DNA of 64,000 bases from Mesorhizobium sp. ORS 3324 (GTDB taxonomy: Bacteria > Pseudomonadota > Alphaproteobacteria > Rhizobiales > Rhizobiaceae). The translations under genes and the position numbers were made by a program. The notes below the pieces were generated by a model that saw only the letters and a list, made by a program, of their open reading frames with translations, was not told where the DNA came from and ran no database searches. Shown piece after piece: positions 4,437 to 56,163 of the stretch (position 1 is the first letter of the stretch; every line of letters begins with the position of its first letter). The stretch lies in contig LM655207.1 of NCBI GenBank assembly GCA_000824825.2, forward strand, positions 30,760 to 94,759, given 5' to 3'.

Positions 4437-4512
<76 letters not shown>

Positions 4513-4658
4513 TTCCCTCTTCTCCCCAGGCTCCCTTTCGCCGAACCATCTACGCTTAAGTCTCCGCAAATGGCTGATTTTGCGCGTCTTTTCGGCACGA
4601 AAGATGCGCTTGGGCGAATTTCATCGCGGTTGGGCAAACTTCGTCCAACGGGGCCAGG

Positions 4659-4698
4659 TGTTGGTATTTTTGTTGGTATCGGAGAACCTGTTGGTATC
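4659..4698 (+). repeat. Triple TGTTGGTAT direct repeat before integrase
   Basis: The 9-mer TGTTGGTAT occurs at 4659, 4671 and 4689, between the tRNA-Phe gene and the integrase. Spaced direct repeats beside the attachment core are typical of arm-type binding sites of tyrosine integrases; that role is inferred. The integrase ribosome-binding site follows at 4710. Confidence 0.55.
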
Positions 4699-4724
4699 GA
4701 AGCACCAATAGGAGGTCCTACAAA

Positions 4725-8998: not shown

Positions 8999-9007
8999 AT
9001 ATCGTCA

Positions 9008-11498: not shown

Positions 11499-11499
11499 C

Positions 11500-14062: not shown

Positions 14063-14105
14063 GCTGTCCTCCTCCGCTCTTTGGCGGAATTCACAATTGC
14101 GAAAT

Positions 14106-14168: not shown

Positions 14169-14190
14169 ATTCACAACCGAGGGAGATGCC

Positions 14191-15099: not shown

Positions 15100-15335
15100 G
15101 CCATCCAAATCATTTCCTCCCTAGCGAGCTTGCACTGGCGCGTTACGGCTCGATGCCGATCAAGCGCCGCGGGCCGGGATGCAATGGGGGTTCGCAACAA
15201 CGCCCCCCTTGCGAGGATGGCGCGGTACCGTCGCGCGTGATCTCAAACGTGACGGTGAGCTGGCGAGTGAAGTCATATGCTGGCGGTGATGCTGCACCTC
15301 TTCATATCCTGACCCGTGCAATGTCATGGAAACCA

Positions 15336-17930: not shown

Positions 17931-18259
17931 ATGACGAACTGACGCGCAATAAGTATCGCCAGTCCAATGGTGGGAGGCGAAGAGTTGCGTGGTAGTTCGT
18001 TAGACCCCGGCGCGTTGCTCGGTCAGCGCACTGACCGCGAACCGATAAGCCAAATCGGCCATACCCGATTTGGAGCGTTATCAGCCGATGCATTTTCCAA
18101 CAAGAAACGTTCGGATGAAGTCTCTACCTGCGTTGTCTAACGCCTTAGGGACCTCTACACTACCCCATTCCGACTCGCTGTTCTTGCAACAGAGATGTCG
18201 GGCGTGACCTCATTTGCGAGGCACTCCGGCCTCTTTTCAGTCTGGGATGTAAATTTCGG
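17931..18259. other. Intergenic, probable promoter of large NTPase gene
   Basis: 329 bp between the IS remnant and the large STAND gene. No coding frame has family features. It should contain the promoter of the downstream gene, but I could not pick a convincing -35/-10 pair. Confidence 0.4.
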
Positions 18260-40777: not shown

Positions 40778-42106
40778 TTAGGAGCTCTGCTCATGCTCAG
40801 CCGCGAGGACCCAGCCGTCATTGGCTGCTTCCGTGGTAGAGAGCGAACTCGCCGACGGTGCGGCCTTGGCTGCAGCGTTGCGCTCGAGAAAGGCTCGGAC
40901 AATACCAAGTTCGAATTGTTTCTGCGAGCGCGCAAGCGATACGTCCGCAAGCGTCGCATCGGCCATCGTCGTTATGGCATGTGGCTGGAGTTCGCCTGCA
41001 TACTCGCATGCGCCAATCGCCATGGTCGGGCAAAGCGTGCAAGGCCCCTTCGTTCGCGACAGTCTCCCCGTGACCTTGTTGAACGCGATTCCACCACGCT
41101 TCGCCTCGTCGATGAGCTGGGCGAGAACCTTCGGCCGGAAGACCTTGAACCCGTGCGGATTTCCCGTGATATGCGGCGAGAAGATCACTCGCGCCTCGTG
41201 CTCAGTGTCGCCAAACTTGAGGCGGATCTCGCGATCGACCAAAGCTTCCACTGTTTCTCCCACCTTCGGCGCGCCAAGTGAGAAGTTGCCATTCATCTGC
41301 TCAAGGAACGCGTCCGTCGTGGCCTGGCTAATTACGAGGAGCACCGCTGGCATCGAGTGCGCCAACTGACGCAGGAAATATTGACGTTTGACGAAGCACT
41401 CGACGACGATCCCCTCCATTTCGGTGCGGGCCATCGGCGGCATCCGCGGATCCTGTGCATAGGGCTTCAACAGCCATTTTGCCGATGGGCATCCGATCAT
41501 GTTGCCATAGGAAAGGTCCTCGCCCACGACCGGTTTGGCGTCGTTCCAGTCCATTGCCTCCGCCATGTCGGCGAGAAGCGCTTCATAACCTTGGTACATT
41601 GGGACTGGCCGCGGCTCTAGAGGGATGGTCCTGTGCCCGTCAGCGTCCATAGGCACTGCAAGCTCAGCGGTCGAAAGCGGCGGATCTTTTGCATCGCCGC
41701 CGAAACGCTCGTAATCAGCGAGCGGAATGTCGAGCTTAGCGTTCGCCCTGTACCGAAAGTAGTGGGCGAATTCCTGTACCTCGTCGAACAGCGGATTGAC
41801 CGAATTGGGCCTGTTCCAGCCGGGCAGGTTGGGATTGATCCCGACAGCCATGATCGGAGCCTTGCGACAGCCGCTCAGCGCCTCGGCGACAAGGGGACGT
41901 CGGCCTACATAGGCGCTCTTGAGCCCGATCTCGTGATGCATCATCGGTGCGTCGGGCTCATAGTCGAAGCTGTGCCAGATACCCCATTTCCTGAAATAGG
42001 CGCACGGCAACGGAGGCCTGTCCGCGACTTGGGCGCTATGTTCGTCGGCACAAGGCTTGATCTGATAGAGCAGCTCAATCTCGGTTGGTACTTCGGTGAT
42101 GGGCAT
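40778..42106 (-). CDS. Cys-rich hypothetical protein, last gene of QS operon
   Basis: 442 residues, no signal peptide. A segment APIMAVGINPNLPGWNRPN (about 83-101) is reminiscent of the GxNPx active-site loop of uracil-DNA-glycosylase-like folds, but the rest does not let me assign it. Near the C-terminus is a Cys cluster CTLCPTMAIGACEY (about 360-373) that could bind a metal or Fe-S centre. It starts 18 bases after the phosphorylase-like gene and is the last of the minus-strand run headed by luxR/luxI. Function unknown. Confidence 0.6.
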   Translation of the reverse strand: MPITEVPTEIELLYQIKPCADEHSAQVADRPPLPCAYFRKWGIWHSFDYEPDAPMMHHEIGLKSAYVGRRPLVAEALSGCRKAPIMAVGINPNLPGWNRPNSVNPLFDEVQEFAHYFRYRANAKLDIPLADYERFGGDAKDPPLSTAELAVPMDADGHRTIPLEPRPVPMYQGYEALLADMAEAMDWNDAKPVVGEDLSYGNMIGCPSAKWLLKPYAQDPRMPPMARTEMEGIVVECFVKRQYFLRQLAHSMPAVLLVISQATTDAFLEQMNGNFSLGAPKVGETVEALVDREIRLKFGDTEHEARVIFSPHITGNPHGFKVFRPKVLAQLIDEAKRGGIAFNKVTGRLSRTKGPCTLCPTMAIGACEYAGELQPHAITTMADATLADVSLARSQKQFELGIVRAFLERNAAAKAAPSASSLSTTEAANDGWVLAAEHEQSS

Positions 42107-42124
42107 GGATGCTTCCCCGATGGT

Positions 42125-43585
42125 TCACCGACGTGCCGTGAATTCCTGCCGGGCGACGAGGCGCCCCGCTTCGAATAAATAGCTGCCACGAAACACGCCG
42201 GTGTTGCTTTCCTGCGAGACGTTCGCCAGCTGCAGGTTGCGGCGATTACCTGCTTCGTCGGTGAACGCATAGCTGCGCCAATCGACTGACGCAGACCCGG
42301 GATCAAATCCGACGCGCTCAGCTTCGCCGGCGAAAGCGGCGGCATCGACAGGCGAAGGCGCCGCGCCGCGCGTGACGGTCGCGTCATCAGCGGACAACGC
42401 CGCCAGCAGTACTGCCTCGGGACTGGGCTGTGGCGCTGGCTGCGGCGCTCTCGCCGCGGCTATCACGGCGGCTATCGCCGGCGAGGGCTGGGCCGGGTTG
42501 GCAGCCGCGGGTACGGTCGCTCGGATCACGGCCCAAGTCGCGATCACGCTACCCACCGTCGTGTAGAGCCCGTATTTCTTGTAGATGTCACCGGCGACCT
42601 TGTCGCGTTGATCTTTGGGAAGAGTCCCATCAATCTGCGGATCGGACGCATTGCGGATCGCAACCCAGAGTGGTGCGTCGGCGCGTCCCTCCATCGCCAG
42701 CCCCAACACCGCATCACCCATCTCGCAAGCATGCCCGAGTTCCTGCAGACCGTAGGTGTCGTTAGTGTCGTCATAGGCAAAGAAGTCGGTGGTCACGATC
42801 ACGGGCTGGGGCAGCTCATGCGATTCCGGATACAGCATGCGCGGCAAGCTATTGTTAAGGGGCTTCAGCGCGTCGCCGTTCGGCTTCAGCAGCGCTTCGG
42901 TCACTTGCGCAAACGTCGTGGCCGGCAAGGTGCTCGTTGCGTAGCTGGCTGTCTTGAACGGCGCGTTCTTGAATTTGGTGGTGCAGTCGAAACGGACATT
43001 TTTGGCAATCACGACATCGCCGAGCTCGATGCTGTCCCCAATACCCCCGGCGGTCCCCGTCGTGATCACCACTTTGGCGCCAGTTTCCGCGACGATCTGC
43101 TCCCACAGGTCCTTCACTGGAAGCGCCGGACCATCATAATCCATGTGCAGGCCGGACTTGAAGCAAAGGACCCGGGCCTCGCCGATTTGGCAGGGGTGAT
43201 AGAGTCCGAGCACATGGTGATACATAGCCAACCCGCCCCGGAAAGGTGCGCGCGGTCCGGTGACCTTCGGAATGAAGTCAGCCAGGTTGTGCGTATATCG
43301 GCCCCATGATTCGATCTGAATGCCGGGTGTGAACAGGGTCGCCAAGGCGCGCGCCTCGGCTGCCGTCCAAGTAACGACAAGCACGTCGCATTGAGGAAGC
43401 GGTCCTCCTGGATCGCTTGTGTCCAGCGCCATCGCGAACGGAGCGAAACCGACAGGCCAGGGCACTGGATTGGGCAGCGGGGGAGCGGCAAGCGTCGCCG
43501 CAAATTCCGTCGCCGTGTCTGCGAAGCGTAGCTCGGGCGCGAGGGGGTCGTAATTGAGGATAAGATCCTGGAGCTTTTCGGACAT
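42125..43585 (-). CDS. Nucleoside-phosphorylase-like protein with Ala/Pro-rich tail
   Basis: 486 residues from ATG 43585 (AGGAGGAACACTATG). Residues about 65-350 carry a PNP_UDP (MTA/SAH nucleosidase, purine phosphorylase) fold: CDVLVVTWTAAEARALATLF near 68, AKVVITTGTAGGIGDSIELG-DVV near 170 and the CEMGDAVLGLAMEGRADAP loop near 285, which is the base-binding motif with Glu and Asp nearby. A proline/alanine-rich linker (about 375-410) and a C-terminal part of about 75 residues of unknown type (WRSYAFTDEAGNRRN) follow. Nucleoside cleavage is likely, but the substrate cannot be told. 34 bases from the upstream gene stop. Confidence 0.7.
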   Translation of the reverse strand: MSEKLQDLILNYDPLAPELRFADTATEFAATLAAPPLPNPVPWPVGFAPFAMALDTSDPGGPLPQCDVLVVTWTAAEARALATLFTPGIQIESWGRYTHNLADFIPKVTGPRAPFRGGLAMYHHVLGLYHPCQIGEARVLCFKSGLHMDYDGPALPVKDLWEQIVAETGAKVVITTGTAGGIGDSIELGDVVIAKNVRFDCTTKFKNAPFKTASYATSTLPATTFAQVTEALLKPNGDALKPLNNSLPRMLYPESHELPQPVIVTTDFFAYDDTNDTYGLQELGHACEMGDAVLGLAMEGRADAPLWVAIRNASDPQIDGTLPKDQRDKVAGDIYKKYGLYTTVGSVIATWAVIRATVPAAANPAQPSPAIAAVIAAARAPQPAPQPSPEAVLLAALSADDATVTRGAAPSPVDAAAFAGEAERVGFDPGSASVDWRSYAFTDEAGNRRNLQLANVSQESNTGVFRGSYLFEAGRLVARQEFTARR

Positions 43586-43619
43586 AGTGTTCCTCCTATA
43601 CGAGACGCCTGGCAGACGT

Positions 43620-44561
43620 TCAAATGACAACCAGATACCGGCTGATTTCGTCGCCGACGGGCATCACTAGGCGGGCTTGCGTCTGGGTCTTGGCCGTCCC
43701 CATCTGGTCCCATCCTCCGCAGTTCGCCCAAATACGGTAGAAAGCAAGCACGCCTCCGTCGCGATAGGAGACGAAATACGGTTCTCCATGCGCGAATTGG
43801 AGCGGTTGCACGAGCTTCAGCGACATCGCCTCGGGTAATTGGTCTTGCATCTGCGAGGTGACTTCGATCGTGCCCTGGCTGAGATCGTCCAGGATGCGGT
43901 CGATGTTTACATTGGGATAGACCGGATTGGTCTTCAGGAAGAAATTCGCGAGCCCGAAAGTGAAGAACGCGAAACGCGTCCACCCCTTGGCCCAAAGGTG
44001 CGCCCATTGCACTAGCGCGAACAAGGGCGGCGTGTCGGCGGGCGAGGTGGAGCGAACGCTGAGCGTATAGCTGGCGACGGCTCCAGTGGCGCCGTTATAG
44101 CCGATAAAGGCGATTCTTCCACCCGGCTCGACCGCAAACGGCTTGACCATTGAGAAGGCGGATGTCGTTCCCGGCTCGTGGGTCCGCCTGAACACATATG
44201 GTCGCGAAAGCGCGCCCGTGTCGCCAAGTTCGTAGAAGGTGAAGTTCCCTTTGGCTTGCTCGTAGCACAACAAATGCAGCCGATTGCCGAGGACGAACGG
44301 TTCGATCTCATCGAGTTGTTGCGGCAAGGTCAGCTTTGACCTGGCGGACAAGAATGGCGGGGCGTCGGAGACAGCGAAGAGTGATGCGACGCCGCTTTCG
44401 CGCTCATAGGTGAGAACGTGGAGACCGTCAGCTAGCTTGAGCGCCGCGGCGGCCGTGACCTCCTCGGAGATGCCATTTACCGGCCCGGAAAATAGGACCC
44501 TCGCCGCTATAACGCCCGAGGAGTCCTTTGCCAGTTCGAACACGTCCACCGAGCCCGCCAT
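43620..44561 (-). CDS. Hypothetical protein with beta-propeller-like repeats
   Basis: 313 residues. A motif recurs four times: LHVLTYERESGVASLFAVSD (about 47-66), LHLLCYEQAKGNFTFYELGD (about 94-113), IAFIGYNGATGAVASYTLSV (about 149-168) and PYFVSYRDGGVLAFYRIWAN (about 264-283). Each has the shape hydrophobic-x-Tyr-x4-Gly-x-hydrophobic-Tyr, like blades of small lectin-type or tachylectin-like propellers. Between the third and fourth lies an inserted helical stretch. No signal peptide. The role in this operon is unknown; substrate binding or a structural part is possible. Confidence 0.5.
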   Translation of the reverse strand: MAGSVDVFELAKDSSGVIAARVLFSGPVNGISEEVTAAAALKLADGLHVLTYERESGVASLFAVSDAPPFLSARSKLTLPQQLDEIEPFVLGNRLHLLCYEQAKGNFTFYELGDTGALSRPYVFRRTHEPGTTSAFSMVKPFAVEPGGRIAFIGYNGATGAVASYTLSVRSTSPADTPPLFALVQWAHLWAKGWTRFAFFTFGLANFFLKTNPVYPNVNIDRILDDLSQGTIEVTSQMQDQLPEAMSLKLVQPLQFAHGEPYFVSYRDGGVLAFYRIWANCGGWDQMGTAKTQTQARLVMPVGDEISRYLVVI

Positions 44562-44641
44562 CTAGTCCTCCGTCCAGCTCGTTGAACCTTGCCGTTACGC
44601 GAAGCCTTGAACAAAAAAGCTGTTCCCCGCATGCATTCCCT

Positions 44642-46300
44642 CTAGGACGGCATCAGTTCACATACACGGAAGGCATTCGCGAGTAAGGTAAGAGAGGGGT
44701 TCGAGGCGCCCGCGCTAGGCATCCACGCCGCGTCGAGCACCGTCAGCCCCGCCACTTCGTGCGATTCGCACATTGGGTTGAGCACCGAAGCGCCGCGATC
44801 TTGGCCTGCCCGCAACGCACCATGGACGTGTCCATAGCCGGGATTGGCTTCATCCTGCGGTTCGCTCTTGCGCAGTTCGCCCCCGCCGGCCGCCACCGCA
44901 TCGGCGATCCGTTGCAGCGCGAAGCGGCTCATGTCGCAATCCCATGTATCGTGGCGATAAAAGGTCTTGGCGACCGGCACGCCCCATGGATCCTTGACAG
45001 CGGGATCGAGCTCAACGCGGTTATCGTAGAGGCTCATCGCGTCGCCGGTGAACGACACCGACACTCCCGCCTGGCTACGAATCTCTTGAAGATATCGAAC
45101 GAGATCGTCGCCCCAAATCGCCTTCTTTTTCGGGCCGAAAGAGGCGGCCTTCAGCAAGCGGATCGGGGTGGTGCAGGTGAATGGATCGTATACGGAGAAC
45201 TTACCCGCCTTGCGAAGGTCGCCCGCCGAGTCCTTGTAGGTATAGATGCCACGCAGCTGCAGACTGCCGATTGCCGTTACGGGCTGCACTGAGAAATCAC
45301 GGGGACCCGGATCCCAAACGCGCTTGCCGGGGAAAGTGAAATGTGCCTCGCCCTTGGTGTGGTAGGTGAGATATCGCCCAATCATTTGGTTTGGATCAGG
45401 GATCTCGGAAAGCAGGAAAAGCCGCGCCGACTGGATCGTCTGGATCGAGACGATCACGCGGCGCGCTCCGAGGAATTGTTCCGGCCCTTCGGGCTTGGTC
45501 TTGTACCATACCCCCCGCACTTGGCTGCGACCGTCTCCCTTGTCATGCTCGATCCGCGTCACATAATGGCCAGGACGCAGGTCGCACCGCCCGGTCGCCA
45601 GCGCCCGCCGCAGCATCGTGTTGACGCCGTTCGCGCGCGAATTCACCGCGCAGCCAAAGAACTGACAGTATCCACAGAACGGGCAACCCGGGCGGCCGTC
45701 ATAGGTCAACGAGTTGATCGCGCGCGCGCCGATGTAGGGGCCTAGCCCAGCGTTGCCGAACAGGTCCTTAAGGAACGGTGTCGAGAGATGAGGCTTCAGA
45801 GCCGGGATCGGATATTCATAACCTGGCCTCATCTCTTCCAGCGACTGCGCCGCGTCCCCGGAGACGTCCCATTCCCACTCGGCGCGCTCGAACCAGGGGA
45901 GGAACTCCTCGTAGGTCCAGGGCCATGCGACCATGTGCTCAGCATTGCGCAAGCCCGTTAGATAGGGCGTCACGTCGAAATCGGCCGATGTGTAGCGCGG
46001 GAAATTCCCGTCCCAGATCATGGTCGACCCGCCGACCATGTTGACCTCCCACCAGCGTTCACTCGGCGTGGGCGTCGCGCCGTCGAGGCCCGCATAGATC
46101 ATCGGATCGTCGACGATCTTGGGAATAAGGTTCTTGTGCTCCCGGAAATGCAGTTCGTCGAGCGGAAGGAACTCGTCGGCGTGAACTTCCTGCCCCTTTT
46201 CGAGCACGACTACGTTCCAGCCGCGCGAAGTCAGGACGCGCGCTGCCGTCGAGCCACCGGCGCCGCTTCCGACGATGATCGCATCGGGTTGCTCGATCAT
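44642..46300 (-). CDS. GMC-family FAD oxidoreductase
   Basis: 552 residues from ATG 46300. The FAD-binding motif is IIVGSGAGGSTAARVL (about 8-23) with VVVLEKGQE (about 31-39). The middle contains NMVGGSTMIWDGNFPRYTSA, a typical GMC flavin-contact region. The C-terminus has the GASNPSLTLLANAFR motif that closes the FAD site. GMC enzymes oxidise alcohols, sugars or aldehydes. The start overlaps the stop of the gluconate-dehydrogenase-subunit-3-like gene by 4 bases (ATGA), so the two are likely partner subunits. A Cys-rich stretch CPFCGYCQFFGCAVNSR (about 217-233) may bind a cluster, as in membrane-bound GMC dehydrogenases. Confidence 0.9.
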   Translation of the reverse strand: MIEQPDAIIVGSGAGGSTAARVLTSRGWNVVVLEKGQEVHADEFLPLDELHFREHKNLIPKIVDDPMIYAGLDGATPTPSERWWEVNMVGGSTMIWDGNFPRYTSADFDVTPYLTGLRNAEHMVAWPWTYEEFLPWFERAEWEWDVSGDAAQSLEEMRPGYEYPIPALKPHLSTPFLKDLFGNAGLGPYIGARAINSLTYDGRPGCPFCGYCQFFGCAVNSRANGVNTMLRRALATGRCDLRPGHYVTRIEHDKGDGRSQVRGVWYKTKPEGPEQFLGARRVIVSIQTIQSARLFLLSEIPDPNQMIGRYLTYHTKGEAHFTFPGKRVWDPGPRDFSVQPVTAIGSLQLRGIYTYKDSAGDLRKAGKFSVYDPFTCTTPIRLLKAASFGPKKKAIWGDDLVRYLQEIRSQAGVSVSFTGDAMSLYDNRVELDPAVKDPWGVPVAKTFYRHDTWDCDMSRFALQRIADAVAAGGGELRKSEPQDEANPGYGHVHGALRAGQDRGASVLNPMCESHEVAGLTVLDAAWMPSAGASNPSLTLLANAFRVCELMPS

Positions 46301-46815
46301 GGTGACGTTCCCTGAACGGCTGGTGCGCCTTGGGCGGCGTCGCCGTCGGGATAGCCCAACCAGTTCCAAATGACCTTCTCGCGATTGCCGCCCCAGCGCG
46401 GATCGGCCACGCATCCTTCGATACAATGTCCGCGGAGCACACCGAATAAAACCTTCTGGTTCTGCGCGGACATGCTTCCTGTCAGAGCACCTTTCGTTAG
46501 ATCGGCTAGAAGTGCCGTCGCTTGATCGCGCGACAATACCGCGAGCGGCTTGCCAAAGCGGCCGCGCGCGACATTCTCCAGGTACGGCAGCCCCTCCTTG
46601 TATCGGGTGATCCAGCTCGGGATTTCGTAATAGACGGTCGCGGGGAGCGCGAGGAGCTGGTCGACGTAGTCAGCCGCGCCTGCTTCCCGCGCGCCCGGGC
46701 GATCCTCTCCGCCCGGCCAGATGGCGTCGAACAAAACGACGAGCTGCCGTAATTCGTCGGCGTTGAAGTGCCGCGCGCCCGTCATTTGAGGTAAGGGAGG
46801 AACCGTGCCTGGCAT
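46297..46815 (-). CDS. Gluconate 2-dehydrogenase subunit 3-like protein
   Basis: 172 residues from ATG 46815, which overlaps the upstream stop (TGATG). The FNADELRQLVVLFDAIWPG (about 17-35) N-terminus and the ending GCVADPRWGGNREKVIWNWLGYPD (about 135-158, read as GCVADPRWGGN then WNWLGYPD) are family hallmarks. These small proteins assist GMC-type dehydrogenase subunits, usually with an exported Tat signal; here no signal is visible, so a cytoplasmic complex is possible. Paired by overlap with the GMC oxidoreductase. Confidence 0.82.
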   Translation of the reverse strand: MPGTVPPLPQMTGARHFNADELRQLVVLFDAIWPGGEDRPGAREAGAADYVDQLLALPATVYYEIPSWITRYKEGLPYLENVARGRFGKPLAVLSRDQATALLADLTKGALTGSMSAQNQKVLFGVLRGHCIEGCVADPRWGGNREKVIWNWLGYPDGDAAQGAPAVQGTSP

Positions 46816-47936
46816 CACGCCGCTCCGATGCTGAGTAGTGCCTCGGCACGCTCGACCATGCCGATATAGGGAGTGATATCCGCGGCGCCTGAATGTTGGA
46901 TGAGATTGACGACGAGTGCATCGTCGGAGTCCGAGAAGAAGCTCCCTGCCATCGGATAAAGCTGGTTGTTCTCGCGCACAGCGTGCGCACGGAACAGCCG
47001 CACGAATGAACGAGCGAGCGCGGTAAAGTCGAGCAATGCGTAGAAACGGTCGTCGTCGTCGCCGAACTGAACGCGTCGCCACGCGACGTCTATCGCCGAC
47101 CAATACGCCCGCGCCTGATCGTGTTGGTCGAATACCCACTGGCCTTTGCGGCGGTCCATACCACAGGCCACCGCCACTTCAATCATCGCTTCTTCAGCTT
47201 TAAGGTGAACGGGATCGGCAAAATGATCAATAAGGTGCACGAAGTAAGCCATGCCACGTCGCAGATCGTCTGGAAGCGCCGTCGGCGGTGGCGACGTCCA
47301 TGCATCCGCAACCTCCGTCGGAACGCGGCCCTCTACGAGATGGTCGAGACCGTCAGCGATAGCAATCCCTATCGTGAAAATACGCTCACCCAAGAGATGC
47401 TCGTGCTGCAGCAACGCTTCGAACTGGCGCCCGCTTTCGGTAGGCGAGGACTCCAGCTTGCCTTGCAGCGCGGGGAGGAACTCGCGGCCCGGCGGACATG
47501 GCTTTAGTAGGCTTTTCATGCCGGCGAGTTCTGCGCCTAGGCATTCAAGATAGTTCTCGCCGACGAATACACATTGGCCAGGCGATACCCCCAACTTACG
47601 AGCGGCGAAACCATAAATTTCCGCTGATGGCTTGTCGGCCTTTGCCTCGTGATTTGTAGTAATATTGTCACGAGGAATGAAATCACCGATGGTAACTTGC
47701 CTCCCTGTATTGTTCAGCGAGAGCTCAGTGGTGACGATCATGTCGCGACCCTGTTCGTCGCTAACATCAGCAGGCAGGTTGGTGATCACCCCGACTCTAG
47801 CGCCGAGCGCCTTCACGCCTTCAAGCAGTTTCTGGGTACTCGGGAGGTAGGCAACCAAATGCCCAGGCCGATCGACCTCACCGAGCGTGTCTCTGACATC
47901 GAACAACACGACCATCTGGTTCGCCGGATCAACCAT
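46815..47936 (-). CDS. HAD-like domain fused to hemerythrin-like domain
   Basis: 373 residues from ATG 47936 (AAGGAGACCAAG before it). N-terminal half (about 1-160) is HAD-like: VVLFDVRDTLGEVD has the DxRDT-type loop (the usual second Asp is Arg-Asp shifted), followed by GVITNLPAD near 50 and CVFVGENYLECLGAELAGM near 125. C-terminal half (about 220-370) has hemerythrin-type iron ligands: YFVHLIDHFADPVHLKAEEA, FDQHDQARAY, and FRAHAVRENNQLYPMA. So a phosphatase-like fold is joined to a likely di-iron O2- or ROS-sensing or detoxifying module. I know of no described protein of this composition. It is 100 bp downstream of the sedolisin and overlaps the next gene. Confidence 0.7.
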   Translation of the reverse strand: MVDPANQMVVLFDVRDTLGEVDRPGHLVAYLPSTQKLLEGVKALGARVGVITNLPADVSDEQGRDMIVTTELSLNNTGRQVTIGDFIPRDNITTNHEAKADKPSAEIYGFAARKLGVSPGQCVFVGENYLECLGAELAGMKSLLKPCPPGREFLPALQGKLESSPTESGRQFEALLQHEHLLGERIFTIGIAIADGLDHLVEGRVPTEVADAWTSPPPTALPDDLRRGMAYFVHLIDHFADPVHLKAEEAMIEVAVACGMDRRKGQWVFDQHDQARAYWSAIDVAWRRVQFGDDDDRFYALLDFTALARSFVRLFRAHAVRENNQLYPMAGSFFSDSDDALVVNLIQHSGAADITPYIGMVERAEALLSIGAA

Positions 47937-48036
47937 CTTGGTCTCCTTTACTCGAGAAGTACACGATAAGGTTGAAACCACACCTCATCGCTCTCCCCTT
48001 CCGTGTAAACGCCTCTTCGATATGCTTGAAGGACAA

Positions 48037-49656: not shown

Positions 49657-49758
49657 AGAAAGCCCTCCTCATCACAACGGCTTAAGGAATCGAAGAATTC
49701 GTCGTACTCGGAAGCAGGAAAGTCGATGCCTGGCCGAGACAGCGGAAGTTCGATCCGG

Positions 49759-50418
49759 TCACAGCGCAACCTCAATGATGTCGCTGGTCTTCTGTACGAA
49801 CGGACGCTGCCTTCCCCGCCTCACCAGCAGCGAATGCTCAATCCCGAGTATCTTCCGCACACTCGCCAGCGCCGCCTCATTCACCTCGATATATGCGACG
49901 ATGTACCATTCACCGTCTTGTTCCCGCGCCATACCCAGCGGCTCCGCGCGCCATTTCAATGCGCCGTGGTGGGGCATGAAGTAGGTTTCCTGGACTCCGC
50001 CGACGGCGCTGAGACCCTCGTCGAGCGCGTATTCCATGACCGCGCAGCAGAGCTGCGTCAGCGTGCCGCGCAAGCCGGTCCTCCGTTTGTCGGGCACGAC
50101 GAAGGTGCGGGTCCATTCGGCCCAGTCGGGGCGTCTGGGCACGCCCGATTTCTCGCACATGTGAGGAAAGACCTCAGAGACCATGTGCGGCTCGCTCGTT
50201 GGGATCAATCGGGCCGAGGTCACGACGTGACCGTCTTCGAGACCGAGCAGGTAGGTTGCCGCGTCAGTATCGAACTGGTCTCGCTCGCGACCGTCCGGAC
50301 TTGGAGGGCGCCAGTGTTTTTGATGCACGAAGAAATCGTGCCTGCGGCGCAGAAACTCGTCGAATTCGTTTTCGTAGAGATGCTTGTTCTGCGCATTGAC
50401 GACATGAGCCGTAATCAT
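49759..50418 (-). CDS. Acyl-homoserine-lactone synthase, LuxI family
   Basis: 219 residues, the usual LuxI length. It makes acyl-homoserine lactones from SAM and acyl-ACP. Conserved sites are visible: RRRHDFFVHQKHWRPP (about 24-39), FDTDAATYLLGL (about 49-60, Asp of the SAM site), SARLIPTSEPHM (about 68-79, Arg-Leu-x-Pro) and EVFPHMCE. A weakly conserved C-terminal part follows. The start at 50418 is 57 bp downstream of the lux palindrome. It is the first gene of the run under that box. The acyl-chain specificity cannot be read. Confidence 0.92.
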   Translation of the reverse strand: MITAHVVNAQNKHLYENEFDEFLRRRHDFFVHQKHWRPPSPDGRERDQFDTDAATYLLGLEDGHVVTSARLIPTSEPHMVSEVFPHMCEKSGVPRRPDWAEWTRTFVVPDKRRTGLRGTLTQLCCAVMEYALDEGLSAVGGVQETYFMPHHGALKWRAEPLGMAREQDGEWYIVAYIEVNEAALASVRKILGIEHSLLVRRGRQRPFVQKTSDIIEVAL

Positions 50419-50474
50419 CGCGCGATCCCCCGATCGTTCTTGGGGGAATAGTTGCAGCGTGTCTAATGTACGTC

Positions 50475-50494
50475 ACCTGTCCGATCGGACAGTT
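50475..50494. promoter_or_regulatory. lux-box palindrome between luxR and luxI
   Basis: CTGTCCGATCGGACAG at 50477-50492 is a perfect 16-bp palindrome in the 83-bp gap between the luxR stop and the luxI start, reading towards luxI. It has the size and symmetry of LuxR-type binding sites and lies 57 bases before luxI. No second copy is visible elsewhere in the cluster, so direct activation is expected for luxI and the genes that follow. This role is inferred. Confidence 0.75.
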
Positions 50495-50501
50495 GACTCG
50501 G

Positions 50502-51224
50502 TTATGGGTGGATCAGACGCCTGCGCACGGCCTCGACGACGGCTTGCGTGGTCGTGGCCACGCCGAAAGCCTCGCGGGCGCGTGTCGCATGCCATTTGAC
50601 GGTGCGCTCCGTCAGGCCGAGGATTTGCGAGGTTTCCGATGACGTCTTGCCGGCCGCAGCCCACAGGAGCACTTCCTTCTCCCGATCGGTCAGCGGGCTC
50701 TCAGCGTGTTCCTCGTCATTCGAAAGAGCCTGGATCGTCATGCCGGCATAAACGGCCATGGTGACCAGTTGCACCTGCTGGCGCGCCGACAGCTTGCAGG
50801 ATTTCGCCGAAGAGGCGAATGACAGCACGGATTGCCAGTGATTGACGCTGAGCATCGGCACGGCAAAGCCGCTCCAGATGCCGAACTCCGTTGCTTCGCC
50901 GGCAACGCGCCGCGAAGCTTCCGTGCCGGACCACTTGGCAGGAACCTCGGACCAAAGAAACGGCTTCAAAGTTTTCGCCGAATAGATGCAGACGCCGTCC
51001 ACGGCGGCGTGCTCTGCTTCGACGTAGCGCTCGAACCAGCCTTTGGGCCAACCGTTCAGCTCCACCATAGGCGCGAGTTTCTGCCCGCCCAAAGGGACGC
51101 CACTCAAGATAAGATGTTCAAATCCTAGATTCTTTACTGTTTCGAGCAGGTCGCTCAAAAGCGAGCCTGCTGTAACATGCTTCCTGCAGCGCTCAACAAA
51201 GTCGAATACATCTGAATCGATCAT
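50502..51224 (-). CDS. LuxR-family quorum-sensing regulator
   Basis: 240 residues from ATG 51224. N-terminal autoinducer-binding domain (about 1-165) with the WFERYVEAEHAAVDGVC stretch (about 66-82) containing the Trp/Tyr/Asp contacts typical of acyl-HSL receptors. C-terminal LuxR HTH (about 175-235): SPLTDREKEVLLWAAAGKTS then SETSQILGLTERTVKWHATR. An alternative start eight codons upstream exists. It lies upstream of luxI on the same strand, so it may also be read in the same transcript. Its own promoter should be in the 551 bp before it. Confidence 0.93.
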   Translation of the reverse strand: MIDSDVFDFVERCRKHVTAGSLLSDLLETVKNLGFEHLILSGVPLGGQKLAPMVELNGWPKGWFERYVEAEHAAVDGVCIYSAKTLKPFLWSEVPAKWSGTEASRRVAGEATEFGIWSGFAVPMLSVNHWQSVLSFASSAKSCKLSARQQVQLVTMAVYAGMTIQALSNDEEHAESPLTDREKEVLLWAAAGKTSSETSQILGLTERTVKWHATRAREAFGVATTTQAVVEAVRRRLIHP

Positions 51225-51775
51225 GCCAGAGACCCCTCCCGCATGCACCTTTTATAGCGAATTTAGGATATCTGAATATGCAATTTCGAGTTATCGGCAA
51301 GGCAATAGAGTGAGAAGTAGGTGACAAAATGGTTCTGAGCTGGATTCATCGACGTTGTCTGATCCAGGAATGAAGGATGATGTGATGCGAGAAACGGGGC
51401 GGACTGCACGGTGGTGGCCGAGACGACACAGTCTGGTAAGGATCGCAAAGCGACTTTAGTCACCAAACATTTGTCTTGTCCCAACCGTGTTCCAAGTCCC
51501 CGTTCGGGAAACACCGCCACTCGTTGGTAATGCCCGCGTCCCCTCTTCCGACGCCTAGGCACCGAGCCAGTAGCACTATTTTGTCGATAGTCAGCGGCTC
51601 GAAGAGCGTCCAAGTAAGCGAACCAGATGCACTATTGCGAGCTTGGCCTCGGCGTCTTTCCTAGCAGCCGTTACGCTCAACTTTAGCAAAATGTCTCAAT
51701 TGCGAAGTGAGGTAGGAATGGTGTAAAATCTTCCATACTGTCGAAAAATAATATGATAGGATGCTAAAACCTTGA
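51225..51775. other. Divergent control region between luxR and tyrosinase
   Basis: 551 bp with the promoters of the leftward luxR transcript and the rightward tyrosinase-caspase transcript. An AT-rich stretch at 51690-51770 lies just before the tyrosinase start. I looked for a second copy of the lux palindrome and did not find one. No gene is supported here. Confidence 0.5.
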
Positions 51776-53335
51776 ATGCATCCAAATATATCGGGGTACG
51801 TTGGCAAGCTTTTCGGCTCAGCCATAGCTCGACTAGGGGGTGAGATGGTCGGCAAACGCGAGGACGCCTGGAAGCTGGGCGCAGGTTGGAACGATACCTT
51901 CCTTTGGTACGCCAAGGCCGTGATAGCGTTGAAGAGCCGTCCCGTGACTGACAGGACGAGTTGGCGCTACCTTGCCGCGATGCATCAGTTCGATCGCAAT
52001 CTTTGGATTGGTCTCGGTATCATCGACAAAAAAACGAAGCTGCCGTCTGCTAGCGACATGGATGTCGCCTGGAACCAATGCCAGCATTCATCCTTTTATT
52101 TCCTGCCCTGGCATCGTGGCTATCTCGCCCGTTTCGAGGAGATCATCGCGGCGACGATCGTTTCGCTCGGCGGAAACGCCGGCTGGAAGCTGCCTTACTG
52201 GAACTACCTCGACTCGACCAATCCCAACGCACGCAAGATACCAGAAGCGTTCCTCCTGAAATACCTGCCGGACGGCACGACGCGGAACCCGCTGGAGGAT
52301 GTTCCGCGCTACGGCCAGAAAGTTCTGGGTCCCGAGCCGCGGCTTCACATAGACGACATCGACCTCTCGGCGATGGACGAACCCGATTTCACTGGTTCGG
52401 TCAGCTTCGGGGGCAGCAAGACGCTCTTCTCGAACCCCGATATCGGCATAAGAGGGCAATTGGAGAATGTGCCGCACGGTTCGGTCCACGTACTAGTTGG
52501 CGGAGCTCGCCCGGCCAATCCCGGCGACGGCTATCTTTCCGCCTTCGAGACGGCCGGGCTGGATCCACTGTTTTGGCTCCATCACTGCAACATCGACCGG
52601 CTCTGGGCCGCTTGGATGATCAAGCCAGGCGTCAATATGGAGGCTGGCAAGCAATGGCTCGACGGTCCGTCTAACCGTGCCTTTGCCGTGCCGAAGGCCG
52701 ATGGTTCGGGATTGGAAAACTATACGGCGCGCGATACTTTGAACGGTGGCAAATTCTACCCCGACTACGACGATCTTCATGCCGGCACCGGGGTGGCGGC
52801 AGTGCCAGCGGGCGGACAAGCCGCAGTCCTCGTACAGGGACCAGCAACCATGACGGAGCCGAAGGTCATCGGTGCGAACGGCGAGAAGATCACTCTGGGC
52901 GACGCCCCAGTGGAAACCGCCGTGAAGATCGCCCCGCAGGCCGGCAAGGCAATGGTCACGGCCATGGGGCCTGGCGCGCCCGAAGCGGACTCTGGCAAGC
53001 GGACCTTTCTCAAGCTTGAGAATATCCGCGGTGCAAGTTCGGCTGGCGGCCTGAAGGCCTATGTCAATGCCCCGGCCGGCAGCGAGAAGGACTTGCCGCA
53101 GGAGTACGTGGCCGGAAGTGCCGCCTTGTTCGGCCTGGGTAGTGCCTCCAAGGTGGACGGCCAGCACGGCGGCAACGGTATCACGCTCATCTTCGACATC
53201 TCGGATCTTGCGCGGCGCCTTGTCGATCAAGGCAATTTCGATCCGTCAAACATCCGCGTGAAGATCGTTTCGGCGCACGGCGGCGGCAGCACGAACCCCA
53301 TCACGATCGAGCGCGTCAGCGTCCTGCGAGAGTGA
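51776..53335 (+). CDS. Tyrosinase (type 3 copper monooxygenase)
   Basis: 519 residues. It oxidises phenols to o-quinones (melanin chemistry). Copper A ligands: His70 in LAAMHQFDR, His104 in NQCQHSSFYF and His113 in FLPWHRGYLARFE. Copper B ligands: His234 and His238 in VPHGSVHVL, and His269/270 in DPLFWLHHCNIDRLW. The fold runs to about residue 330, then a C-terminal extension of about 190 residues (beta-rich, ends VSAHGGGSTNPITIERVSVL) that may act as a shielding domain, as in plant and fungal types. No signal peptide. ATG 51776 or 51845 (with better ribosome-binding site GGGGGTGAG) are possible. First gene of the divergent run. Confidence 0.92.
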   Translation: MHPNISGYVGKLFGSAIARLGGEMVGKREDAWKLGAGWNDTFLWYAKAVIALKSRPVTDRTSWRYLAAMHQFDRNLWIGLGIIDKKTKLPSASDMDVAWNQCQHSSFYFLPWHRGYLARFEEIIAATIVSLGGNAGWKLPYWNYLDSTNPNARKIPEAFLLKYLPDGTTRNPLEDVPRYGQKVLGPEPRLHIDDIDLSAMDEPDFTGSVSFGGSKTLFSNPDIGIRGQLENVPHGSVHVLVGGARPANPGDGYLSAFETAGLDPLFWLHHCNIDRLWAAWMIKPGVNMEAGKQWLDGPSNRAFAVPKADGSGLENYTARDTLNGGKFYPDYDDLHAGTGVAAVPAGGQAAVLVQGPATMTEPKVIGANGEKITLGDAPVETAVKIAPQAGKAMVTAMGPGAPEADSGKRTFLKLENIRGASSAGGLKAYVNAPAGSEKDLPQEYVAGSAALFGLGSASKVDGQHGGNGITLIFDISDLARRLVDQGNFDPSNIRVKIVSAHGGGSTNPITIERVSVLRE

Positions 53336-53357
53336 TCCGGGCCGAGAAGCGCTGCCG

Positions 53358-54167
53358 ATGTCGGGGAAAGGTTCGTCCGCGAAATTGTTGTTGCTGAGCA
53401 GTCTGCTCGAACCTCCGTTCAGGGGCGCGATGATGGTTGCCGGCGTAGGTCTGGTTGCCTCGTCGATGCTTGGCATTCACGCCGACCTGCCTTCGATCTG
53501 CGTAGCCTCGGAACAGCTATCCCTCAGCGCCGTCGTTGCCAGTTCACGGTTTTTCATTGCTACCAATCCAACGGGGACCCTGGCATTGGCATGGTTGACC
53601 ATGCTGATTGCGATGATGACGCCGCTCCTCGCCTTGCCCCTGTCTCATGTCCACGCCTCAAGCCTCGCTGACCGTCGACTACGCGCCTCCACGGGTTTTC
53701 TGCTTGGCTATTTCGGCGTCTGGCTTTTCGCGGGGTATCCTCTTCTGGCAGTTGCGATTGCGCTTCGGCTTCTGGCCGGCAACGCATCTGCCGCGCTGAT
53801 GACGGCGTGCCTGCTGGCGCTGATCTGGAGCGCCAGCCCTATGCAGATGGCCGCACAGAACCGGGCGCACCGCCTGCGGCGCATCGGTCTTTTCGGACTT
53901 GCTGCCGATCGCGATTGCCTGGCATTTGGAGCCACTCTGGGGGGCTGGTGCCTGGCCAGTTCGTGGCCCTGGATGCTGGTACCGCTGTTTGTAGCGCATA
54001 CCCACCTAGCCGCAATGTTCGGCGTCGCCATCATCCTCATGGCTGAGCGGCTGCGTGGACCCGGCCCGCTGCGATGGCGTTTCCCGGTCGTCCTCTCAAT
54101 CCCTACCGGCTGGATACGGGAAACTGTGATTTGCCGCCGAAGCTCCGGAGCCACGGGCCATGTCTAG
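53358..54167 (+). CDS. DUF2182 family membrane protein
   Basis: 269 residues with about six membrane helices. The TLALAWLTMLIAMMTPLLAL region (about 75-94) and LAALW-type helices with MMxxxMxP-like spacing identify the DUF2182 family, often annotated as predicted metal-binding membrane proteins. It lies 22 bases after the tyrosinase gene, so a role in copper supply to tyrosinase is plausible but inferred. Its stop overlaps the caspase-like gene start by 8 bases. Confidence 0.7.
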   Translation: MSGKGSSAKLLLLSSLLEPPFRGAMMVAGVGLVASSMLGIHADLPSICVASEQLSLSAVVASSRFFIATNPTGTLALAWLTMLIAMMTPLLALPLSHVHASSLADRRLRASTGFLLGYFGVWLFAGYPLLAVAIALRLLAGNASAALMTACLLALIWSASPMQMAAQNRAHRLRRIGLFGLAADRDCLAFGATLGGWCLASSWPWMLVPLFVAHTHLAAMFGVAIILMAERLRGPGPLRWRFPVVLSIPTGWIRETVICRRSSGATGHV

Positions 54168-56163
54168 AAAATGCCTCGCCATTGGCGTCAGCAGTGTCGA
54201 ACCCGTGGACGATGCAACTGAGGAATTTCCCTATCTCGATGGGGCGGTCGTTGCAGCCGAGACGATCGGCCAATGGGCCCTGCATTCGGGTTTCGCGAAA
54301 TCGGACGTCTTAGTTCTGACAGACAAGGGTTCCAATCGAGTCACGGACAGGTCGTTGCAGGATGCCTTCGACAAGTTGCTGCCCGTAGGTTCGGCTGTCG
54401 ACCATTTCGTGTTGGCCTTCACGGGCCATGGCTTGACCGGCATTAATGACGACACGACCTATTGGCTGCTCAGTGACTCTCTCGACCAGGGCTACAATAT
54501 CTTCGTCGAGGATTTGCGACGGCAGCTTTATGCCTACGGCATCCAGCACCTTACGATCTTCAGCGATGCCTGTCGTGCGATCGCCAACAGCCGCGACCTT
54601 CGTGGTTTGCTACCAAGACCCGGTGTGCGTAAGCGACACCAGCCGCTGACGGACGCAATCGAGGTGGCACGCTTCAACGCCTGCCAGGATGTGGCAAGCG
54701 CTTTCATGGTGCGCGTGCCTGGCGCCGCCGCACCGGGCAAATGTATTTTCTCTGGCGTTTTGGCCGAGGCATTGTGGGGTCTTGTGCCGTCGGCATTTGA
54801 CGGATCGACCATCGACAGTTCCTCGCTCGGTCGGGGGCTGCGCGCCGCAGCCAAGGAACGGGCCAAGCAATATGACCTGACGCTAATTCCCAGCGGAAGC
54901 GCATTCTTCGACAAGGTGATCTACTTCGACAAGGAGGTCCCGCCCTTGCCGCCGAATCCTGAACTGGCGCCCTGGCCGCCGGCCAAGGTGGCTCAAACCG
55001 CCTCTGGTGCGGCTGCCGCACCTAACGTCGCCGAGCAGCCAATCCGAGATGTCTTCAAGTCTGTGCTTAGAGACCCAGAGACCCGGACCGCCATCCTCGG
55101 TGCCTCCTTTGGAATCAGCCATCCCGACATCGATACGAATGATTCGTTTCCAGGTCTGCCGAAAATTGCCAAACCGATAGTCGAAAGCGTCAGTTCGGCG
55201 CGTCTCAGGCTCGCCTCGCCCGAAATATCGAGGCACAGCAGGGAGGTGCTTTCCGACCAGTTGACTAGCCAACTAAAGGCACTGGAGGCACTCGCAGCTG
55301 GTGAGGCGCGCAGGAAAAAAGCAGACGAGCTGGGCGCGCACCTGCAGAATGCCGCTTGGCGTGGTGGCGACGACTATCCGGGACTCGTCTTCAACGATTA
55401 TGAGCCGAAACAAATTTGGTCCGAGAACTCATTTTACCCCTTCGTTGAGTGGTCGGGACAGGTCAAGTTCGTACCCGGTGACTCTGCAAGAGACAGTTTG
55501 TTGGTGGTTGAATTCTGGGACGGCCTGTTCGCTCCCGTTTGGTTCTATAGCGATCTGGTCTGCACGGTGTTGCGTGACAGGGATGGCGTCGCGGCGATAA
55601 GCTATCGTCACATCTACGGTGACGAAGCCAACACGAGCGTCGGCGCAAGCGCGATCAGCCAGTTAGTCACGGGCACTCTATCGGTCAAAGAAGTCGATAA
55701 GCTGGCGACCAGCCTCAGATACGAGAAGCATGCCAATCCCACGTTTGGCGCCATCGCAGCCTACTGCTACGACGTGACCGGAGATCTGAACTCCATTCGT
55801 CGCATGGCCGCCTACTATGGACAAAGGGACCAGGCTGCTCCCTACGACATTGTGTTCATGGGCATGATTGAGAATGACGGCACATTAGCGCGCGTGCCAA
55901 ACGTGCCCAAGGACAGACGCCGCCGGGAACGACCTGATTGGGTATCCGGTCGAATGGAGGCTGTCGACGTACGCGTCGCTGGCCGCTGTCCGTGGCTTCG
56001 TCAGGGTTGGGATTTTCTGAGTTCGCCCGAGGATTCGGAAAGACCTCTCGTCAACGATCTCGATCGGTTCCGTAAGCACCTGACGCGTTCTGTGTTTACC
56101 ACGCTGGACACGAGAGGCGGCAGGGAACTCGTCGAAAGGTGGCGACTGCGGCGAAATCTGTAA
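54160..56163 (+). CDS. Caspase-like (peptidase C14 type) protein, 667 aa
   Basis: 667 residues. Residues about 1-270 form a caspase-like p20/p10 domain. The catalytic His90 is in FVLAFTGHGLTG and Cys138 in HLTIFSDACRAI, with the strand before each conserved. After a Pro-rich linker (about 271-300), the C-terminal about 370 residues have no recognised domain; they include AARRKKADELGAHLQNAAWRG-like sequence, then a beta-rich part with WSGQVKFVPGDSARD. Start ATG 54160 overlaps the DUF2182 stop. Bacterial caspase-like proteases often act in immunity, cell death or development. The partner that activates it is not evident. Confidence 0.82.
   Translation: MSRKCLAIGVSSVEPVDDATEEFPYLDGAVVAAETIGQWALHSGFAKSDVLVLTDKGSNRVTDRSLQDAFDKLLPVGSAVDHFVLAFTGHGLTGINDDTTYWLLSDSLDQGYNIFVEDLRRQLYAYGIQHLTIFSDACRAIANSRDLRGLLPRPGVRKRHQPLTDAIEVARFNACQDVASAFMVRVPGAAAPGKCIFSGVLAEALWGLVPSAFDGSTIDSSSLGRGLRAAAKERAKQYDLTLIPSGSAFFDKVIYFDKEVPPLPPNPELAPWPPAKVAQTASGAAAAPNVAEQPIRDVFKSVLRDPETRTAILGASFGISHPDIDTNDSFPGLPKIAKPIVESVSSARLRLASPEISRHSREVLSDQLTSQLKALEALAAGEARRKKADELGAHLQNAAWRGGDDYPGLVFNDYEPKQIWSENSFYPFVEWSGQVKFVPGDSARDSLLVVEFWDGLFAPVWFYSDLVCTVLRDRDGVAAISYRHIYGDEANTSVGASAISQLVTGTLSVKEVDKLATSLRYEKHANPTFGAIAAYCYDVTGDLNSIRRMAAYYGQRDQAAPYDIVFMGMIENDGTLARVPNVPKDRRRRERPDWVSGRMEAVDVRVAGRCPWLRQGWDFLSSPEDSERPLVNDLDRFRKHLTRSVFTTLDTRGGRELVERWRLRRNL

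What the first reader, a model, noticed from the sequence alone, without database searches (positions are those of the whole stretch)
40778..56163. Quorum-sensing-headed cluster of oxidases and proteases of unknown purpose
Twelve genes spread from one centre. Leftward: luxR, luxI, S53 protease, HAD-hemerythrin fusion, gluconate-DH-subunit-3-like, GMC oxidoreductase, propeller-like repeat protein, nucleoside-phosphorylase-like, Cys-rich protein. Rightward: tyrosinase, DUF2182, caspase-like protease. Several neighbours overlap (ATGA, TGATG), which implies joint expression. Known families give phenol oxidation, alcohol oxidation, di-iron chemistry and two proteases under density control. I know of no described system with this set. 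A population-level oxidative or self-destructive response, or an extracellular crosslinking process, is a guess.
Basis: partly seen in the sequence, partly recalled or inferred. Interest (0 to 1): 0.85.

Follow-up and report, generated by a model that had tools for sequence, protein, structure and literature searches.

The report
Quorum-sensing head with swappable cargo
A cell-density switch (luxR-luxI) that stays almost identical across many Mesorhizobium-type genomes sits in front of a different set of genes, many of them lytic or oxidising enzymes, in nearly every strain examined, so it looks like a shared signal wired to exchangeable strain-specific cargo.

Summary
The genes are real and where stated, but the 12 genes are not one pathway. 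(1) luxR-luxI is a constant head: LuxI 87-93% identical occurs in 18 of 89 other same-genus genomes, with a lux-box palindrome about 74 nt before luxI (24 of 24 copies within 2 mismatches). Identity collapses to random after LuxI codon ~208 and upstream of luxR. What follows luxI differs: 7 of 276 copy pairs share anything in the next 2.5 kb, against 153 of 153 for another LuxI family. At one site with both flanks 91-94% identical the cargo is wholly different. (2) Here the cargo is a sedolisin, then an oxidoreductase/nucleosidase module that also occurs without luxRI. (3) Tyrosinase-DUF2182-caspase is a third module, found without luxRI in two other loci; no lux box faces it. Recognised cargo elsewhere includes peptidoglycan hydrolases, lipases, proteases and copper oxidases. 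Best reading: AHL-triggered exchangeable effector cassettes. Architecture is shown; control of the cargo and its purpose are inferred.

The parts
50502..51248 (-). luxR (constant head); most relatives align from residues 2-7 on, so the true start may be slightly downstream
   Evidence: Autoind_bind + GerE; relatives mostly 84-94% identical
50477..50492 (.). lux-box-like site CTGTCCGATCGGACAG, perfect 16-nt palindrome, 74 nt before luxI
   Evidence: the only match with 0-2 mismatches in the window
49759..50418 (-). luxI (constant head to about codon 208, then a copy-specific tail)
   Evidence: Autoind_synth; identity profile and tails
48037..49656 (-). cargo: sedolisin (S53) protease with pro-kumamolisin domain
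   Evidence: 73% identical to a copy in a Phenylobacterium MAG stretch without luxRI
46815..47936 (-). module A: HAD-type hydrolase with weak hemerythrin-like C-terminal part
   Evidence: 69% in G047, 38% in Azospirillum p5
46297..46815 (-). module A: gluconate 2-dehydrogenase subunit 3-like; no Tat signal seen by eye
44642..46300 (-). module A: GMC oxidoreductase
   Evidence: 74% in G047, 54% in Azospirillum p5
43620..44561 (-). module A: propeller-like repeat protein without family (propeller fold not tested)
   Evidence: relatives in G047 (opposite strand to the module) and Burkholderia pBPJTT
42125..43585 (-). module A: nucleoside-phosphorylase/nucleosidase-like protein
   Evidence: PNP_UDP_1; MTA/SAH nucleosidases by profile; GTAG, EM.DA and N.SDP invariant in 4 rows
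40778..42106 (-). module A: Cys-rich protein (GCRKAP..GINPN and C..C..C invariant in 4 rows), no known family; relative fused behind the PNP-like domain in Burkholderia
51776..53335 (+). module B: tyrosinase with DUF7868 C-terminal domain
53358..54167 (+). module B: PpoB2/DUF2182 copper chaperone-like membrane protein
54160..56163 (+). module B: caspase-like protease
4437..6035 (+). tRNA-Phe and tyrosine-type integrase: left edge of the low-GC3 stretch (probable island) whose far end holds this locus
   Evidence: no shared 12-mer found between 4401-4740 and 38-58 kb, so the right end is unproven

Best explanation
The locus is one instance of an exchangeable-cargo quorum-sensing unit. A constant luxR-lux box-luxI head makes and senses one acyl-homoserine lactone and switches itself on at high density (inferred from families and the lux box). 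Transcription from the luxI promoter is expected to run on into whatever genes lie behind luxI (inferred). Those genes differ between strains even at one and the same site (shown), probably by recombination that uses the head and the outer flank as homology (inferred), and displaced heads remain as remnants (a truncated luxI with lux box in G075, a luxR without its 5' part in G066; shown). In this strain the cargo is a sedolisin plus an oxidoreductase/nucleosidase module, with a tyrosinase-copper chaperone-caspase module divergently placed on the other side. Since recognised cargo elsewhere includes many peptidoglycan hydrolases, lipases, proteases and copper oxidases, the likeliest role is density-triggered release or deployment of antagonistic or lytic enzymes, with a signal shared across strains and weapons private to each.
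For: LuxI 87-93% identical in 18 of 89 other same-genus genomes; best match outside the genus among the listed rows 39%. 18 copies, 153 pairs: mean pairwise identity 0.79-0.93 in the first 19 bins of luxI, 0.73 and 0.59 in the next two (codons 191-210), then 0.25-0.29; 0.24-0.30 upstream of the luxR start. Downstream 2.5 kb shared in 7 of 276 pairs of 24 copies; control LuxI family 153 of 153 pairs of 18 loci, ten of them from genomes also in the test set or its outgroup. Site-matched swap: G070 vs G066, both flanks 91-94% identical (one 176-nt piece 80%), unrelated cargo of 2421 vs 849 nt; G017, G044 and G011 share the luxI-side flank, with unrelated 4.8, 6.4 and 4.3 kb between it and luxI. 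Lux box: 19 of 24 copies exact, 4 with 1 mismatch, 1 with 2. First downstream gene on luxI's strand in 18 of 21 copies; median GC3 0.61 for cargo vs 0.71 for luxI. Cargo families: GH25, GH19 (below cut-off), Amidase_2/YkuD, M15, CHAP (below cut-off), patatin, GDSL, astacin, trypsin, CHAT, multicopper oxidase, tyrosinase, sedolisin; S8 peptidase and caspase behind luxRI on M. huakuii p_2.
Against: No expression data: cargo control by the lux box is not shown. The window's own cargo lacks a lipobox and I saw no export signal by eye. In 3 of 21 copies the gene next to luxI is on the other strand; G077's next gene is an integrase; pMHb has DegT aminotransferase, transketolase and radical SAM genes further down, so not all cargo is lytic. 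Twenty of the 30 cargo proteins scanned with Pfam were picked by eye as recognisable; of the 10 picked without reading them, 5 had no family, 1 only a sub-threshold one, 1 was an integrase and 3 fit the lytic/oxidase picture; 3 of the other 20 had none. Genes on the luxR side vary too at several sites, so the swapping is not limited to what luxI could transcribe. No immunity genes were identified.
Confidence: 0.58

Rival explanations
1. A single quorum-controlled oxidative or cross-linking system of twelve co-operating genes.
For: All genes are adjacent, in two divergent blocks around luxRI, with overlapping starts and stops in parts. A tyrosinase also lies between luxR and luxI in G033 and G038, and S8 peptidase plus caspase behind luxI in M. 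huakuii p_2.
Against: Module A occurs without luxRI and module B in the stretches read of G047 and Azospirillum p5; module B without luxRI in G053 and Mesorhizobium sp. AR10. No lux box before the tyrosinase.
Confidence: 0.12
2. Module A is a biosynthetic operon for a small molecule (for example a modified nucleoside), put under density control by luxRI.
For: GMC oxidoreductase with GDH3-like partner, HAD phosphatase-like and PNP-like enzymes, without a secretion signal seen by eye; in Azospirillum a GDPD gene and an amidohydrolase domain join; pMHb has sugar-biosynthesis-like genes further down from luxRI.
Against: Relatives also carry proteases next to it (S8 in G047 and Azospirillum; S53 here), and Burkholderia has DNase II and R-body genes near; no NRPS or PKS family among the 40 window ORFs scanned.
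Confidence: 0.2
3. luxRI serves the mobile element: it controls excision or transfer of the island, as TraR-TraI do for Mesorhizobium symbiosis ICEs, and the neighbouring genes are passive hitch-hikers.
For: The locus lies in a low-GC3 region with an integrase next to tRNA-Phe; Mesorhizobium ICEs carry luxRI genes directly upstream of fseA (passages in PMC9973854).
Against: No relaxase or type IV secretion family among the 40 window ORFs scanned (fseA itself was not searched for); luxRI heads sit in differing places; cargo is mostly same-strand and often enzymatic.
Confidence: 0.08

Closest known systems
LuxR-LuxI acyl-homoserine-lactone circuits, e.g. Mesorhizobium japonicum R1-I1 (PMC10470506; first part of the text and passages seen)
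   Same: LuxR and LuxI families, adjacent genes, palindrome before luxI
   Different: R1-I1 is described as conserved in most Mesorhizobium genomes, with an I1-linked crotonase-superfamily gene; this pair has a sedolisin next and differing cargo per strain. Direct sequence comparison with R1-I1 to R4-I4 of MAFF 303099 was not made.
Marinomonas mediterranea ppoB1-ppoB2 tyrosinase operon (PMC2855505, passages seen)
   Same: Tyrosinase followed by a protein of the PpoB2 family, which in Marinomonas transfers copper to tyrosinase
   Different: Here a caspase-like protease follows as third gene in the three loci compared (window, G053, AR10)
Polymorphic toxin and CDI-type loci with swapped effector ends and orphan modules (recalled, no call)
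   Same: Constant part, sharply bounded variable part, displaced remnants, lytic cargo
   Different: The constant part is a regulatory gene pair, not a trafficking domain fused to the effector; immunity genes not identified
Kumamolisin (sedolisin, S53; PDB 1t1e)
   Same: Part of the prodomain and the catalytic domain align (E 5.8e-35)
   Different: Placed behind luxI; aligned from residue 103 on

Membership tests
LuxR-LuxI quorum-sensing circuit | Autoinducer synthase domain and LuxR with autoinducer-binding and GerE domains, adjacent | tested here: met
LuxR-LuxI quorum-sensing circuit | Palindromic LuxR-type site upstream of luxI, conserved | tested here: met
   24 of 24 copies within 2 mismatches; the 69% relative in G031 has none within 3; binding not tested
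LuxR-LuxI quorum-sensing circuit | AHL made and sensed | not testable with these tools
   needs mass spectrometry and a reporter
Mesorhizobium R1-I1 circuit | Linked crotonase-superfamily gene involved in making the signal | tested here: not met
   next gene is the sedolisin; feature from the text seen of PMC10470506
Sedolisin (S53) peptidase | Prodomain and Glu-Asp-Ser catalytic motifs | tested here: met
   Pro-kuma_activ; GE..LD and GD.GS align to kumamolisin 1t1e, GGTS stands where that entry has GGTA (roles of residues recalled)
ppoB1-ppoB2-type tyrosinase operon | Tyrosinase with copper-binding His and adjacent PpoB2/DUF2182 | tested here: met
   (H70, H104, H113, H234, H238, H270 identical in the two aligned sequences; assignment as ligands recalled)
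Caspase/metacaspase-like peptidase | His-Cys dyad in a caspase-like domain | tested here: inconclusive
   H90 and C138 invariant in 4 rows; only weak profile matches
Polymorphic toxin system | Constant N-terminal trafficking domain fused to variable toxin tips | tested here: not met
   constant part is luxR-luxI; only the last LuxI residues vary
Polymorphic toxin system | Cognate immunity gene | tested here: inconclusive
   lipobox proteins among the first five genes behind 9 of 21 luxI copies, role unknown; none in the window cargo
ICE TraR-TraI regulation | Transfer genes next to luxRI | tested here: not met
   no relaxase or type IV secretion family in the 40 window ORFs scanned; integrase and recombinase genes lie more than 40 kb away

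The most novel reading that the evidence does not exclude
Mesorhizobium-type bacteria share a common density signal whose constant luxRI head works as a plug-in socket: any gene set placed behind luxI becomes a quorum-triggered weapon or lysis programme. Strains therefore hear the same signal but fire different, mutually foreign enzyme sets, a quorum-sensing analogue of polymorphic toxin systems that would act in kin discrimination.
Probability: 0.33. Interest if true: 0.87.

Novelty: new variant of a known kind. Interest (0 to 1): 0.72.

Why it matters
LuxRI circuits are usually studied with a fixed regulon (recalled). Here the regulator pair is the constant part and the neighbouring output genes are replaced wholesale, with a boundary near LuxI codon 208. 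That makes testable how a shared signal can control private goods, how cargo is acquired, and whether a common AHL sets off different lytic or oxidative programmes in neighbouring strains. It also gives a search tag (the lux box plus the LuxI end motif RG.Q..F) for unknown enzymes such as the Cys-rich and propeller-like proteins.

Tried and rejected
Tried without result: folding of the Cys-rich protein alone (mean pLDDT 33; no fold search made). The idea that it is a uracil-DNA-glycosylase relative: hhalign against three glycosylases of the same genome gave 0.4% probability, so not claimed. Its profile hit to ribonuclease F1 (E 0.012) is taken as chance. Attachment-site search: no shared 12-mer between 4401-4740 and 38-58 kb. 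Viral-contig scans for the Cys-rich and propeller-like families found no relative. A genome-contig scan with the propeller-like protein found none; that scan reaches close relatives only. Sigma-70 promoter and terminator scans gave no more than shuffles; one promoter-like site lies before the tyrosinase (51700-51729).

Considered and rejected: anti-phage defence as the role of the locus (the island holds NACHT, KAP and ThiF genes, but PADLOC gave only weak hits for 3 of the 8 cluster proteins scanned); simple conservation of the genes behind this luxI.

Limits of counts: the 150 genomes include the window's own; 89 others are of its genus. The 20 fetched neighbourhoods come from 17 of the 18 genomes with LuxI of at least 87% (G040 left out) plus G031 (69%, excluded from the 24 copies); two more copies come from plasmid records and one is the window. 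The identity profile used 18 copies with luxR directly before luxI; the second copies of L058 and L059 and L061, L064 and L070 were left out, and L081/L082 had not been fetched. The control loci were chosen by me from the ~30% identical matches listed; whether they are the published I1 was not tested. Pairs are not independent: of the 7 sharing pairs, L061-L070 are nearly the same locus, L061/L070-L069 share one small gene, L071-L072 share a GH19-type gene, L069-L071 share only flank beyond the cargo (no match between the cargo intervals); L076-L082 was not looked into. The lipobox rule is home-made; 4 of its 10 hits behind luxI are on the opposite strand, and L061 and L070 are near-duplicates, so the Fisher test (on rounded totals) is only descriptive. 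Of the 30 cargo proteins given to Pfam, 29 are among the 63 listed, whose output was cut, and one (L057:5638-10104) is not.

Literature: searches; no title or abstract start that I saw there describes a luxRI pair with swapped cargo. Several listings were capped (10 of 10, 12 of 194, 2 of 2, 20 of 76, 1 of 1, 8 of 12, 0, 2 of 2, 6 of 33 papers shown). Opened: PMC10470506 (first of seven parts, and passages), PMC2855505, PMC9973854 and PMC13133039 (passages only). Most subscription papers are not in the library.
Full report
Observation. The hemerythrin half and the caspase call rest on weak matches, the latter helped by a His-Cys pair invariant in the four aligned rows. The sedolisin keeps its prodomain and catalytic motifs against kumamolisin (residue roles recalled). 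The tyrosinase keeps six histidines shared with the AR10 relative and carries DUF7868; the DUF2182 protein is of the PpoB2 family, whose Marinomonas member transfers copper to tyrosinase (PMC2855505, passages).

Setting. The genome is 6.58 Mb in 79 contigs. From about 4.7 to 56.2 kb the third-position GC of picked genes is lower (about 0.5-0.77) than in most genes on either side (mostly 0.8-0.9), an integrase sits beside tRNA-Phe, and between them lie NACHT, KAP, ThiF-DUF6791, Mrr and other island-type genes. The locus is at the far end of this probable island; its right end was not proven.

The genes fall into units. Module A (HAD-hemerythrin, GDH3, GMC, PNP-like, Cys-rich, with the propeller-like protein) is found in order in same-genus genome G047, where the propeller relative lies before it on the other strand, and, without the propeller and with a GDPD gene between, on Azospirillum plasmid p5; in both a subtilase-type (S8) protease follows (annotated as two overlapping genes in Azospirillum). 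In Burkholderia pBPJTT relatives of the PNP-like and Cys-rich proteins are fused in one 980-residue protein and a propeller relative lies near, beside a ferritin-like gene and R-body genes, which suggests that those two proteins work together. A lone PNP-like relative also occurs in genome G252 among unrelated genes. Module B (tyrosinase, DUF2182, caspase-like) is found in that order in G053 (tyrosinase match split over two frames) and on a Mesorhizobium sp. AR10 plasmid. No luxRI relative was found in the stretches read of these places. Both modules are rare: of 149 other genomes one has a close HAD-hemerythrin relative (69%) and one a full-length caspase relative (35%). The sedolisin has a 73% relative in an 18.5-kb stretch of a Phenylobacterium MAG without luxRI or the other genes.

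The head. A search with LuxI gave the turning point. Eighteen of 89 other same-genus genomes have LuxI 87-93% identical, and luxR goes with it in most copies. DNA identity to the window at 1e-5 is confined to luxR-luxI in the 3.6-kb loci compared. In an anchored comparison of 18 copies mean identity is 0.79-0.93 over the first 570 nt of luxI, 0.73 and 0.59 in the next two 30-nt bins and 0.25-0.29 after codon 210; upstream of the luxR start it is 0.24-0.30. Each LuxI thus ends in a different short tail after a shared end (RG.Q..F, 18 of 18; L071 and L072 have the same tail). A perfect palindrome, CTGTCCGATCGGACAG, lies about 74 nt before luxI; 19 of 24 copies have it exactly and all 24 within two mismatches, while the 69% relative in G031 has none within three. 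In the window it is the only match with fewer than three mismatches. The own genome has one exact site and three with two mismatches, against one site for the control pattern, so a few further targets elsewhere are possible.

Cargo swapping. Of 276 pairs of the 24 copies, 7 share any translated similarity (tblastx, E 1e-5) in the 2.5 kb behind luxI; one is the window with G045, through a second sedolisin (28.6% identity), and others are near-duplicate or flank effects. For a different LuxI family of the genus (29-32% identical to this one), 18 loci chosen from the list, 153 of 153 pairs share their downstream 2.5 kb. So the variability belongs to this head and not to luxI loci or these assemblies in general. 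The cleanest case is G070 against G066: luxRI and both flanks 91-94% identical (one 176-nt piece 80%), but 2421 nt of cargo in one and an unrelated 849 nt in the other. G017, G044 and G011 share the flank on the luxI side (79-95%, one 379-nt piece 71%) and luxRI, with unrelated stretches of 4.8, 6.4 and 4.3 kb between; on the luxR side they differ too. G069, G077 and G052 share a gene upstream of luxR but not what follows luxI. In G033 and G038 a gene set with a tyrosinase sits between luxR and luxI, with lux boxes (0-1 mismatch) before it, before a later gene and before luxI. G027 has three luxI copies in about 20 kb, one without a luxR match beside it; G066 has two 9 kb apart, the second luxR lacking its 5' part; G075 keeps an exact lux box with a truncated luxI about 5 kb behind an intact copy. 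These look like stacked units and worn remnants.

What the cargo is. The first gene behind luxI is on its strand in 18 of 21 copies. Recognised families are GH25, a Rv2525c-type glycoside hydrolase, amidase with YkuD, M15 peptidase, patatin, GDSL, DUF900 hydrolase, astacin, trypsin-like, CHAT, M48, multicopper oxidase, tyrosinase, sedolisin, metallophosphoesterase and a peptidoglycan-binding domain, and below Pfam's cut-off GH19, CHAP, Hint and a second GDSL; S8 peptidase with caspase is annotated behind luxRI on M. huakuii p_2. Twenty of the thirty proteins scanned were picked as recognisable. Predicted lipoproteins occur among the first five genes behind 9 of 21 copies, 10 of about 105 proteins, against 2 of about 264 elsewhere in the same loci (home-made rule, 4 of the 10 on the opposite strand). 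Exceptions are an integrase behind luxI in G077, sugar-biosynthesis-like genes further down on pMHb, and eight scanned proteins without any family.

Mechanism. Shown: constant head, fixed boundaries, swapped cargo, conserved palindrome. Inferred: the palindrome is LuxR's site; luxI transcription runs on into cargo; cargo is deployed at density as lytic or oxidative goods, by lysis or export. For this strain I saw no export signal on the cargo proteins, so release by lysis or an intracellular role is open. The tyrosinase module has no lux box before it and its density control is unsupported.

Comparison. The pair is an ordinary LuxR-LuxI circuit by family. It does not have the linked crotonase-superfamily gene of the M. 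japonicum R1-I1 circuit (PMC10470506, first part and passages); a direct sequence comparison was not made. It works like a polymorphic effector locus but fails that family's defining fused trafficking domain. No title or abstract start seen in the listings, several of them capped, describes such a head with swapped cargo; the library lacks most subscription journals.

Noticed in passing
window 18260-24787: A 2175-residue protein with a NACHT ATPase domain, next to a second AAA/NACHT gene (24836-27310), an Mrr-type nuclease (27411-28037) and a KAP NTPase (28593-32177): a defence-like block in the same island.
   Followed up: no
window 37100-37963: Predicted pPIWI-associating nuclease (pP_pnuc_1 and pP_pnuc_2); no pPIWI family among the 40 window ORFs scanned.
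   Followed up: no
window 12568-13791: DUF6791-ThiF fusion, a ubiquitin-activating-like protein; partners not looked for.
   Followed up: no
L022 (Burkholderia pyrrocinia pBPJTT), 1-18000: R-body (RebB) genes with DNase II, metallophosphoesterase, tyrosinase, ferritin-like, a propeller relative and a PNP/Cys-rich fusion: another enzyme-rich cluster of unknown purpose.
   Followed up: partly
L020 (pTiCG920), 8992-11624: Relatives of the window's caspase-like protein lie on five Agrobacterium plasmid records; in the one opened it is followed by a hypothetical gene, and no tyrosinase is annotated within 9 kb.
   Followed up: partly
L034, 7810-9009 (-): A lone relative of the PNP-like protein (43% identity) between a CysZ-like and a sugar-transporter gene in another family of the order.
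   Followed up: partly
L061 4480-9451 and L070 5533-10504: luxR and luxI separated by a cassette whose tyrosinase has a Tat-like start by eye, and three lux-box-like sites.
   Followed up: partly
L059 3740-14299: Two luxRI heads in tandem with different cargo; the second luxR lacks its 5' part.
   Followed up: partly
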